NCBI GenBank assembly: GCA_011524975.1 | Contig: WTJD01000212.1 | Location: 1 to 34,231, forward strand | From: Lysobacterales bacterium | Lineage (GTDB): Bacteria > Pseudomonadota > Gammaproteobacteria > Xanthomonadales > SZUA-36 | DNA: 34,231 nucleotides | Direction: 5' to 3' | Shown: positions 2,906 to 27,219 of the stretch, in pieces | Position numbering within the stretch: position 1 is the first letter of the stretch | How the letters are laid out: each line of letters begins with the position of its first letter | Made by a program: the position numbers and the translations under genes | Notes under the pieces: model-generated | Database searches by the model: none | Told to the model about the DNA's origin: nothing | The model's input: only the letters and a program-made list of their open reading frames with translations

Positions 2906-2927
2906 TGTGATAACTCCTGTTTTACAA

Positions 2928-3010
2928 CGAGCGCAGTTGGTTCAAGTCACCCGCGCGCCGAGCCTGGCCTGGCCGCTTCAACAGCCGGGTCGCAGCGCTC
3001 CTCGGCGCTT
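2928..3010 (-). promoter_or_regulatory. SAH riboswitch upstream of ahcY
   Basis: Minus strand: GCGCCGAGGAGCGCTGCGACC...GGCCAGGCTCGGCGC...TGCGCTCG. P1 pairs GCGCCGAG (3008-3001) with CTCGGCGC (2962-2955). The conserved GAGCGCUGC and CCAGGCUCGG are present, with a downstream GCGCTC (2934-2929) able to form the pseudoknot. RBS CAGGAG and the ahcY ATG follow. Confidence 0.92.
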
Positions 3011-23710: not shown

Positions 23711-24472
23711 ATGCGTAAACTGTTGATCATATTGGGTATCCTGGCCCTCATCGTGGGCGTCACTGCCTGGCGTCTGCCCGCCGGTCTGCTCCTTGAGCCC
23801 GTGCAGTCGAGGCTGCCGGAGGTGGACTGGTCCGACACCGAGGGAACCGCGTGGAACGGACGCATCGAGGGCTTCGCCTGGAAAGGGCTGCAGCTGGGGA
23901 CCGTGGCCTGGGAGTTCGTCGGGCTCGAAGGGCTGGACAGCGGCATGACCCGCTGGAACGTGCACGGTCAAAGCCCACAATACGAGTTGCGCGCTCAGGT
24001 CGTTCTGACAGCCGATGGCGACGTGAGCGAGGTTTTTGACCTGCGCGGTTATGCGCCCGCTTCCTGGATCGATATCACCGACCGTCTGCCATTGATCTAT
24101 CTCGAAGGCGTGATGCGGTTCGACATCGAACACCTTGTGCTTGAAAACGGGCTGCCACTTAACGGCGAGGGCATCGTGACCTGGACCGAAGCCGCCATCA
24201 CCGGCGGCGCCAGTGAGCGGTTTGGCACCCTGAGACTGGCGCTCACACCCGGCGAGCGTGGCACGAATGAAGGATTCGATTTCAGGCTCAATTCGACCGA
24301 GCCGGCTGATTTGCGCGTGACAGCCACCGGCAACATGCTGCGCAAAAACTACGAAGTCGATCTTCGCCTGGACATTGTCGACGAGCGAGACGACCTCATC
24401 GGATTCATGCAGCAGCTGGGTGGCGAGATCACGCGGGGCAGATACCGCTATCAATGGCAAGGCAGCCTGTGA
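23711..24472 (+). CDS. gspN: Type II secretion system protein N (GspN)
   Basis: MRKLLIILGILALIVGVTAWRLPAGLLLEPVQSRLPEVDWSDTEGTAWNGRIEGFAWKGLQLGTVAWEF; single N-terminal TM followed by a T2SSN-like pattern. Confidence 0.82.
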   Translation: MRKLLIILGILALIVGVTAWRLPAGLLLEPVQSRLPEVDWSDTEGTAWNGRIEGFAWKGLQLGTVAWEFVGLEGLDSGMTRWNVHGQSPQYELRAQVVLTADGDVSEVFDLRGYAPASWIDITDRLPLIYLEGVMRFDIEHLVLENGLPLNGEGIVTWTEAAITGGASERFGTLRLALTPGERGTNEGFDFRLNSTEPADLRVTATGNMLRKNYEVDLRLDIVDERDDLIGFMQQLGGEITRGRYRYQWQGSL

Positions 24473-25245
24473 AGGATCCGGACTACGCCGCTTTCCTGGA
24501 CATCGCGCGCGAGGCAGCGCGTACCGCCCGGAAAAAAATACTCGAGCATTACCAGGGCAGTTTCGAGGTCGAGACCAAGTCCGACCAGACACCCGTCACC
24601 GTTGCTGACCGTGAGGCAGAAACCTGCATTCGGGACATCCTGACCAAAGCGTGTCCTGATCACGCTGTATTCGGCGAGGAATTTGGCGGTAAAGCCGATG
24701 ATGCCGAATATCTCTGGCTGGTGGACCCTATCGACGGCACCAAAAGTTTTGTCCAGGGCTACGGCATGTTTTCCACGCAAATTGCCCTGATGCATCGCGG
24801 CGAAATTGTCGTTGGCGTGTCACACGCGCCCGCTTACGACGAGAGCGCCTGGGCGGTGCGTGGCCAGGGTGCGTGGGTCAACGGCCGTCGCGCCGCCGTC
24901 AGCCAGTGCCCGGAAGTGAGGGGCGCGAGCGTTTCCACGGGCAACATCAGTTCGCTGGCCGCCACGCCCCGTTGGGCCGCCCTGGGGTCGATACTTGCCG
25001 TGGCGGGCAGAACCCGGGGTTACGGCGACTACTATCACTATCACCGGCTCGCGGCGGGACAGCTCGATGCCGTGATCGAATCCGACGTCAACATCCTGGA
25101 CATTGCCGCATTGAGTCTCATCGTGAGCGAGGCGGGTGGCGTTTTTACCGACCTGTCAGGACAGCCGCCCACGCTCGAGACACGCACTGTTCTGGCTGCC
25201 GGGCCTTCGCTGCATGCCGAATTGCTGTCTATGCTCCGGACCTGA
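24469..25245 (+). CDS. hisN: Inositol-monophosphatase-family phosphatase, probably histidinol-phosphatase HisN
   Basis: GEEFGG, LWLVDPIDGTKSFVQGYGMFSTQIAL, GYGDYYHYHRLAAGQLDAVIESDVNILDIAAL. GTG start in a GTGA overlap with the gspN stop. Confidence 0.85.
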   Translation: MKDPDYAAFLDIAREAARTARKKILEHYQGSFEVETKSDQTPVTVADREAETCIRDILTKACPDHAVFGEEFGGKADDAEYLWLVDPIDGTKSFVQGYGMFSTQIALMHRGEIVVGVSHAPAYDESAWAVRGQGAWVNGRRAAVSQCPEVRGASVSTGNISSLAATPRWAALGSILAVAGRTRGYGDYYHYHRLAAGQLDAVIESDVNILDIAALSLIVSEAGGVFTDLSGQPPTLETRTVLAAGPSLHAELLSMLRT

Positions 25246-25249
25246 TCGG

Positions 25250-25807
25250 ATGCCAAAATTACCCAAAATCCATGAACGGCGCGAACTCGATCCCGGCCAA
25301 CTGTTCACCATCGAACAACTCGACCTTGAATTCTCAAACGGCGTCAGGCGTTCCTATGAACGACTGAGGAGCCGCGGGCTTGGAGCGGTCATCGTGGTGC
25401 CCATGAAGGATGACCACACGGTGCTCCTGGTCAAAGAGTATGCCGCCGGATTGCATCATTACGAAATTGGCCTCGTCAAAGGCCGCCTGGAGCATGGAGA
25501 GTCTGTCCTTGAAGCGGCGCAAAGAGAACTTCAGGAAGAGGCGGGGTTTGCCGCACGCAAACTGGAGGAAATCACCTGTTTGAGCCTGGCGCCCGGCTAC
25601 ATGACCCACGTGACGCACGTGGTGCTGGCGCAAGACCTTTATCCCAGCAGGTTGCCGGGTGATGAGCCGGAGCAGCTGGATGTCGTGCCATGGCGGCTGG
25701 ATGAACTTCGACAACTGACGGAACGGGATGACTGCACCGAGGGACGCACCATTGCCGCCCTGTACATGGCCCGCGACCATTTAGCCCACCTGAAAGGAAC
25801 ATCATGA
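25250..25807 (+). CDS. nudE: ADP compounds hydrolase NudE (Nudix)
   Basis: MPKLPKIHERRELDPGQLFTIEQLDLEFSNGVRRSYERL...; Nudix box GRLEHGESVLEAAQRELQEEAGF; position next to cysQ. Confidence 0.92.
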   Translation: MPKLPKIHERRELDPGQLFTIEQLDLEFSNGVRRSYERLRSRGLGAVIVVPMKDDHTVLLVKEYAAGLHHYEIGLVKGRLEHGESVLEAAQRELQEEAGFAARKLEEITCLSLAPGYMTHVTHVVLAQDLYPSRLPGDEPEQLDVVPWRLDELRQLTERDDCTEGRTIAALYMARDHLAHLKGTS

Positions 25808-26604
25808 ACCCAGAGCAACTGATGACCGAGCTGGCGTCCATTGCCCGCGAAGCCGGCCGGGCTATTCTTGACATCTATGACCGCGAATTCGACGTGTCCT
25901 TCAAGGACGATCGCTCTCCGCTGACCGAAGCCGACCTTGCCAGCCACGTGGTTATTCGTGACGCGCTGCTCGCCCTGACGCCCGACATTCCACTGCTGTC
26001 CGAGGAATCAGCATCCATTCCCTGGCAGGAACGATCCCGCTGGCGGGAATACTGGCTGATCGATCCCCTGGACGGCACCAAGGAATTTGTCAATCGCAAT
26101 GGCGAGTTCACGGTCAATATCGCCCTGATCAGGGACCATTACCCAGTGCTGGGGGTGGTTCACGTACCGGTGCAGTCGGTGACCTACGCCGGCGCGGCAG
26201 GCACCTCGTGCACCCGTCAGGATAGTGACGGCAAGCCGCGCGCCGTGCAGGTCCGCGTTCCGCCTGCCCAACCACCGGTACTGATCGGCAGCCGCTCGCA
26301 CGCCAATCCCGACCTGGCCCGAAGACTGTCGGGCATCGGGCCGCATGAACTGGTCAGCATGGGCAGCTCACTGAAGTTTTGCCTGGTGGCTGAGGGCAAG
26401 GCCGACCTTTATCCAAGGTTGGGACCCACCTCCGAATGGGATACCGCCGCCGCGCAGGCGGTGGTGGAGGCGGCCGGGGGCGGCGTGGTCACGCTGCAGG
26501 GCGATCGACTGGCCTACAACACGCGCGAGAGCGTACTCAACCCTGAATTCCTGGTCTTTGGCGATGCCTCGCAGGGCTGGTGCACCAAGGTCGCCGCTAC
26601 CTAA
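25804..26604 (+). CDS. cysQ: 3'(2'),5'-bisphosphate nucleotidase
   Basis: DVSFKDDRSPLTEADLASHVVIRDALLALTPDIPLLSEES, YWLIDPLDGTKEFVNRNGEFTVNIALI, SSLKFCLVAEGKADLYPRLGPTSEWDTAAAQAVVEAAGG. ATGA overlap with nudE. Confidence 0.95.
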   Translation: MNPEQLMTELASIAREAGRAILDIYDREFDVSFKDDRSPLTEADLASHVVIRDALLALTPDIPLLSEESASIPWQERSRWREYWLIDPLDGTKEFVNRNGEFTVNIALIRDHYPVLGVVHVPVQSVTYAGAAGTSCTRQDSDGKPRAVQVRVPPAQPPVLIGSRSHANPDLARRLSGIGPHELVSMGSSLKFCLVAEGKADLYPRLGPTSEWDTAAAQAVVEAAGGGVVTLQGDRLAYNTRESVLNPEFLVFGDASQGWCTKVAAT

Positions 26605-26648: not shown

Positions 26649-26677
26649 TTGACGTTCGGAATTCGGAGTTGTATAAC
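26649..26677 (+). promoter_or_regulatory. Predicted sigma70 promoter in the cysQ-erpA intergenic region
   Basis: TTGACG (26649-26654), exactly 17 nt, TATAAC (26672-26677). Confidence 0.7.
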
Positions 26678-26683
26678 TTGCGC

Positions 26684-26777
26684 AACCTCACTCATGGGGG
26701 TCTTGCCGACAATAACGATAAAAACAGAGAAAAACAGCAATAACAGCTCAACTGGAAGCGGCCTCGGCCGCTTTTTT
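26684..26777 (+). ncRNA. Candidate small RNA (about 95 nt), A-rich, promoter- and terminator-bounded
   Basis: Downstream of TTGACG-N17-TATAAC. Contains AATAACGATAAAAACAGAGAAAAACAGCAATAACAG and ends at GCGGCC-TC-GGCCGC-TTTTTT. No convincing ORF. Confidence 0.5.
26758..26777 (+). terminator. Rho-independent terminator upstream of erpA
   Basis: GCGGCCTCGGCCGC followed by TTTTTT. Confidence 0.82.
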
Positions 26778-26871
26778 GTTGCCTGGAGATCGTCCCGGGC
26801 CCACCCATTGACATTGAAAATCAGCCCCATCGCCGCCATAGTGAGCGTGTCGATAAGAGCGTAGCAAGCCC

Positions 26872-27219
26872 ATGGAACACCCAAACCCTCAAGGAGCCAT
26901 CGTTTTCACCGATGCTGCGGCACGTAAGGCTTTTGAGCTGATCCTGGAAGAGCGCAACCCGGAACTCAAGCTCAGGGTGTACATCCAGGGCGGCGGCTGC
27001 TCAGGCTTCCAGTACGGCTTTTCCTTTGATGAGGTCGCCGAGGAAGGAGATCTCAGCTTTACCAATGAAGGCGTCACGCTCCTGGTCGACCCGCTGAGCT
27101 TCCAGTACCTGGCGGGCGCCGAGGTCGATTACACCGAGAGCCTTCAGGGCGCACAGTTCGTGATTCGCAACCCCAACGCGAGCACCACCTGCGGTTGCGG
27201 GTCTTCGTTTTCCGTTTAG
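26872..27219 (+). CDS. erpA: A-type iron-sulfur carrier ErpA
   Basis: [43 protein letters not shown]...[43 protein letters not shown]; conserved Cys of A-type carriers. Confidence 0.97.

What the first reader, a model, noticed from the sequence alone, without database searches (positions are those of the whole stretch)
26649..26777. Candidate A-rich small RNA between cysQ and erpA
The gap holds a self-contained transcription unit: TTGACG-N17-TATAAC, then about 95 nt, then GCGGCC-TC-GGCCGC-TTTTTT. The body AATAACGATAAAAACAGAGAAAAACAGCAATAACAG is rich in A-R-N-like triplets, resembling known binding sites of the Hfq distal face and the CA motifs of Crc/Hfq-sequestering RNAs such as CrcZ. No convincing ORF overlaps it. 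It could be a free sRNA, possibly an Hfq sponge, or a prematurely terminated erpA leader. Sequence elements are seen; function is inference.
Basis: partly seen in the sequence, partly recalled or inferred. Interest (0 to 1): 0.65.

Follow-up and report, generated by a model that had tools for sequence, protein, structure and literature searches.

The report
Conserved undescribed A-rich small RNA gene
The gap upstream of erpA holds its own small RNA gene, kept with promoter and terminator in most relatives and recognisable beside the same genes in many gammaproteobacterial families, with no Rfam match; it most likely makes a short RNA that binds the RNA chaperone Hfq.

Summary
At 26649-26777 there is TTGACG-N17-TATAAC, a ~95-nt A-rich body and an intrinsic terminator (7-bp stem, CUCG tetraloop, six T). 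No such promoter-terminator unit arose in 20,000 shuffles of the gap. A covariance model finds the unit in 30 of 39 genomes of the window's family, and the 29 family members examined keep promoter, spacing and terminator. The RNA body is 86-88% identical to a congener; its flanks are 37-39%. Wider searches find it in many other gammaproteobacterial families, mostly directly upstream of argC-DUF6776-...-erpA. The window's lineage lacks argC and DUF6776 there but kept the RNA. erpA has its own conserved promoter after the terminator in 27 of 30 loci, so an erpA leader is unlikely. No reading frame is conserved. The A-tract has strong 3-nt A periodicity (z 7.5, one sequence per family), as expected for Hfq distal-face binding, and the genome encodes a canonical Hfq. 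A Crc role is not supported: the Crc homologue keeps nuclease residues. No Rfam family matches. Best reading: a new Hfq-binding sRNA family; base-pairing regulator versus Hfq sponge is unresolved, and nothing shows expression.

The parts
26649..26677 (+). sigma-70-type promoter TTGACG-N17-TATAAC
   Evidence: Read directly; TTGAC[G/C]-N16-18-TATAA[A/C] recovered in the window and 29 family members
26684..26778 (+). predicted sRNA, about 95 nt, 5' end AACCUCACUCAUGGGG
   Evidence: Placed 6 nt after the -10, the same in relatives; found by models R1 and R2; not experimentally mapped
26686..26699 (+). 5' hairpin CCUCA-CUCA-UGGGG; sequence differs between lineages
   Evidence: Fold of the window RNA; relatives fold other 5' stems; mean pairing probability of the 5' part 0.54 versus 0.25 in the A-tract
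26697..26707 (+). GGGGTCTTGCC, nearly invariant in about half of the family; candidate seed
   Evidence: Alignments A2 and A4; absent or altered in other lineages
26711..26746 (+). A-rich ARN/NAN-triplet tract, proposed Hfq distal-face site
   Evidence: 3-nt A periodicity; mostly unpaired
26756..26777 (+). intrinsic terminator AAGCGGC-CTCG-GCCGCTT plus T-run; proposed Hfq U-tail
   Evidence: GCGGC..GCCGC nearly invariant in family and class alignments
26814..26842 (+). separate erpA promoter TTGAAA-N17-CATAGT
   Evidence: Scanner; equivalent TTGA..CATA[G/T]T spacing in 27 of 30 family loci
25804..26604 (+). cysQ, upstream neighbour
   Evidence: ORF; orthologues upstream of the RNA in most family genomes
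26872..27219 (+). erpA, downstream neighbour
   Evidence: ORF; orthologues in 60 of 61 genomes searched

Best explanation
This is an independent sRNA gene of a conserved family that I found in no database searched. A sigma-70-type promoter makes a ~95-nt RNA ending at a strong intrinsic terminator (strongly inferred from conservation). The RNA has three modules: a short 5' hairpin that differs between lineages, a single-stranded A-tract in NAN/ARN triplets, and a terminator with a U-tail. I propose that the A-tract binds the distal face of Hfq and the U-tail its proximal face, as in class II Hfq sRNAs such as MgrR (inferred). Hfq would then present short lineage-specific segments (GGGGUCUUGCC in part of this family; the stretch just before the terminator elsewhere) to mRNAs in trans (speculative; no target identified). 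It is not a leader of erpA.
For: Unit not produced by 20,000 shuffles. Conserved in 30 of 39 family genomes with promoter spacing. RNA body 86-88% identical to a congener versus 37-39% for flanks. Same unit in other families, mostly right upstream of argC/DUF6776/erpA, with different first genes downstream. erpA promoter after the terminator in 27/30 loci. No conserved ORF. A-A autocorrelation at lag 3: z 7.5, lag 6: z 5.7, none at lags 2, 4, 5, one sequence per family. Canonical Hfq with the SIYLVNGIKLQGQ distal-face segment identical to E. coli Hfq. Class II architecture with a central ARN motif described for MgrR (PMC6239178).
Against: No expression or Hfq-binding data. The triplet tract departs from strict ARN (GAU, CAU, UAG triplets occur). 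No seed is conserved across families, which would equally fit a sponge. The periodicity test is partly circular because most class members were found with models containing the tract; the five found by synteny alone give z 3.3, a small set. RNA:erpA pairing is no better than shuffled (85 of 300).
Confidence: 0.68

Rival explanations
1. Hfq sponge: the RNA acts mainly by titrating Hfq (or a protein loaded on Hfq) through its A-tract and U-tail, with no mRNA pairing.
For: The elements conserved across families are the A-tract and the terminator, both Hfq-type modules, while 5' sequences differ. Many upstream regions are AT-rich, hinting at strong promoters.
Against: Only one tract of about six triplets in ~95 nt, so a very abundant transcript would be needed. 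Sub-lineages keep near-invariant non-A segments (GGGGUCUUGCC; GUGUGGGGACU; CACCACCA), which suggest pairing functions. Crc partner not supported.
Confidence: 0.22
2. Cis-acting leader/attenuator of the downstream argC/DUF6776/erpA operon, with regulated readthrough at the terminator.
For: The unit nearly always lies upstream of a first gene of this neighbourhood.
Against: erpA has its own conserved promoter after the terminator, and -10-like motifs precede argC in several loci by eye. The first gene changes or is lost while the RNA stays. No conserved antiterminator is visible and 5' folds differ.
Confidence: 0.1
3. Small protein gene.
For: The window and one relative have an ATG-started frame (MGVLP...) running past the terminator.
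Against: No ribosome-binding site (10-nt 5' leader); most relatives lack the ATG, have stops or shift frame.
Confidence: 0.02

Closest known systems
Class II Hfq-dependent sRNAs of enterobacteria (MgrR; from general knowledge also ChiX, CyaR)
   Same: About 85-100 nt, central single-stranded A-rich ARN tract, intrinsic terminator with U-tail
   Different: No sequence match in Rfam; different locus; no known target; Hfq dependence untested
CrcZ/CrcY (RF01675), Hfq/Crc-sequestering RNAs of Pseudomonas
   Same: A-rich ARN-type triplets; one homologue (L176) gives a weak sub-threshold CrcZ match (25 bits versus gathering 95)
   Different: 95 nt with one tract versus a 398-position model; sigma-70-type promoter; genome's Crc-type protein keeps nuclease residues
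Xanthomonas sRNA asX2 (RF02236)
   Same: Only a weak opposite-strand match over the terminator (21.8 bits versus gathering 70)
   Different: Wrong strand, far below threshold, explained by the GC hairpin

Membership tests
Independent intergenic sRNA gene | Own conserved promoter and terminator bounding a short transcript | tested here: met
Independent intergenic sRNA gene | No conserved coding frame | tested here: met
Independent intergenic sRNA gene | Discrete transcript in cells | not testable with these tools
   No transcriptome data available here
Class II Hfq sRNA | Single-stranded A-rich ARN tract | tested here: met
   3-nt periodicity and low pairing; strict ARN only partly obeyed
Class II Hfq sRNA | U-tailed intrinsic terminator | tested here: met
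Class II Hfq sRNA | Host Hfq with canonical distal face | tested here: met
Class II Hfq sRNA | Physical binding to and dependence on Hfq | not testable with these tools
   Needs CLIP, gel shift or an hfq mutant
CrcZ-type Crc/Hfq sponge | Match to the Rfam CrcZ model at its curated score | tested here: not met
   No match for the window; best relative 25 bits versus 95
CrcZ-type Crc/Hfq sponge | Crc protein (nuclease-dead paralogue) in the genome | tested here: not met
   The closer xth-family protein L239 keeps GDWN and SDH residues and is nearest to a Neisseria exonuclease
erpA leader / attenuator | Downstream gene depends on readthrough | tested here: inconclusive
   A separate conserved erpA promoter argues against; transcription not measured
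Any described Rfam 15 family | Match at gathering score | tested here: not met
   Window; homologous loci showed nothing near a curated score

The most novel reading that the evidence does not exclude
An ancient sRNA family, undescribed in Rfam, spread over many gammaproteobacterial families and tied for long evolutionary times to the argC-DUF6776-bactofilin-erpA neighbourhood, in which the Hfq-binding chassis is kept while the target-pairing segments are exchanged between lineages.
Probability: 0.4. Interest if true: 0.65.

Novelty: new member of a known kind. Interest (0 to 1): 0.52.

Why it matters
Most non-model gammaproteobacteria have no sRNA catalogue, and sRNAs are usually thought to be shallowly conserved. 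A syntenic sRNA gene recognisable in many families, beside genes for iron-sulfur cluster delivery (erpA) and arginine synthesis (argC), gives a tractable case to test how the Hfq-binding scaffold and the target seeds of an sRNA evolve separately.

Tried and rejected
Rfam: only sub-threshold matches. Coding frame: not conserved. erpA leader: own promoter. RNA pairing with erpA's start region: no better than shuffled. Crc partner: nuclease-like protein. Covariation for the 5' hairpin: almost none, the terminator being nearly invariant. One order-level R1 hit (G132) was an unrelated terminator after a dsbC-like gene; one class-level hit (L262) ends in an unrelated hairpin. Literature on an sRNA upstream of argC or at PA0661 gave nothing relevant in the searched library. 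Genome-wide target search was not done: the genome could not be loaded as a file and a short seed gives too many chance hits.

Full report
Observation. The gap between cysQ (25804-26604) and erpA (26872-27219) contains TTGACG-N17-TATAAC at 26649-26677, an A-rich body and an intrinsic terminator ending at 26777. The predicted RNA is about 95 nt from 26684 and folds with a short 5' hairpin, an open middle and a 7-bp terminator with a CUCG tetraloop, -22.7 kcal/mol, z -2.0. Promoter plus terminator arose in 0 of 20,000 dinucleotide shuffles of the gap.

Conservation in the family. The regions upstream of erpA in relatives show the same unit. A covariance model from 14 sequences (R1) finds it in 30 of 39 same-family genomes in a sample of 300 from the order. 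The six genomes of genus g12 lack it. In 28 of the 30, one search shows erpA downstream in the fetched stretch (L068 and L072 are short contig stretches); cysQ is upstream in most. The promoter motif with 16-18-nt spacing was recovered in the window and all 29 relatives tested (for L086 the promoter lies further upstream and the body is longer). Against the congener G001 the RNA body and terminator are 86-88% identical, the gap on either side 37-39%.

Wider distribution. A second model (R2) searched against 274 genomes spread over the class gave 11 hits outside the family. In 8 of these the fetched stretch shows the unit directly upstream of argC, usually followed by a DUF6776-type gene, or upstream of erpA. 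Independently, looking upstream of argC without the model showed the unit in L213, L215, L223 and L225. A third model (R3) hit 32 of 369 genomes; of 29 non-own loci inspected, 19 have argC directly downstream in the same orientation (counting L265, where it lies about 0.4 kb further down, as an additional, looser case), 2 have erpA, and others show the same divergent neighbours HemJ or ClC. Members outside the family share the TTGAC promoter, an A-tract and the GCGGC..GCCGC terminator but not the 5' sequence. E-values are rough because calibration was shortened, and R3 contains some of the loci it then found; the shared neighbourhood is the stronger evidence. Two contig matches by length suggest that the family belongs to or near Lysobacterales: G029:C40 and JAOZKI010000015 (42,695 bp), G031:C45 and JAJFLA010000050 (54,538 bp).

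Not a leader, not a gene for a protein. A second promoter, TTGA[A/T]..-CATA[G/T]T, lies just upstream of erpA in 27 of 30 family loci, including loci with a gene between RNA and erpA. The first gene after the RNA varies (erpA, DUF6776, argC; yqaA-like in two other lineages). No reading frame is kept.

Likely mechanism. The A-tract averages 54% A and shows A-A autocorrelation at lags 3 and 6 but not 2, 4 or 5: over 31 sequences z 11.9 and 5.7 (inflated by relatedness), with one per family z 7.5 and 5.7, and in the five members found by synteny z 3.3 and 3.0. With no coding frame, a 3-nt repeat fits Hfq's distal face, which takes one A-R-N triplet per subunit (PMC8121710). The tract is predicted to be mostly unpaired. 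The genome encodes Hfq next to miaA and hflX, almost identical to E. coli Hfq in the Sm core. The arrangement resembles MgrR, a class II sRNA with a central (ARN)5-like tract (PMC6239178). That paper also reports that removing the A-rich sequence did not change MgrR stability, a caution for this inference. Whether the RNA pairs with mRNAs or only titrates Hfq is open. Lineage-specific conserved segments (GGGGUCUUGCC in part of this family; GUGUGGGGACU in g8/g11; CACCACCA before the terminator in f32, f54, f56 and f66) favour pairing; the lack of a universal seed favours titration.

Known or new. No Rfam 15 family reaches threshold in the window or homologues, and the literature searches found no report, although only open-licence papers were searched. 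The kind (Hfq-type sRNA) is known; the family appears undescribed. Membership in the class II group is not claimed beyond architecture, since binding is untested.

Shown: sequence elements, conservation, synteny, periodicity, absence of a conserved frame, presence of Hfq. Inferred: transcription start, existence of the transcript, Hfq binding. Speculative: seeds, targets, physiological role.

Noticed in passing
window 2922-3009 (-): SAH riboswitch aptamer (RF01057, 56.6 bits, above gathering score).
   Followed up: no
L257, L259-L261, L264, L266, L268, L269 (families f32, f54, f56, f66): Homologous RNAs carry a CACCACCA-like motif (CATCACCACTAAGC in f32) between A-tract and terminator, a possible lineage-specific seed.
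   Followed up: no
L259 and L250: Similar RNA units outside the argC context lie divergent from lipB-lipA or a ClC channel and upstream of a YqaA-type membrane protein gene, suggesting relocation of the RNA gene.
   Followed up: partly
L239 (own genome G000:C36): A Crc-type ExoIII paralogue that keeps the catalytic residues lost in Pseudomonas Crc; closest to Neisseria exonuclease 2jc5.
   Followed up: partly
window 24454-25245 and 25804-26604: Two inositol-monophosphatase-family genes lie near each other (the second being cysQ) with a NUDIX gene between them.
   Followed up: no
genus g12 (G012, G020, G025, G029, G032, G034): All six genomes of this genus lack the RNA although the family otherwise keeps it, a candidate lineage-specific loss.
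   Followed up: no
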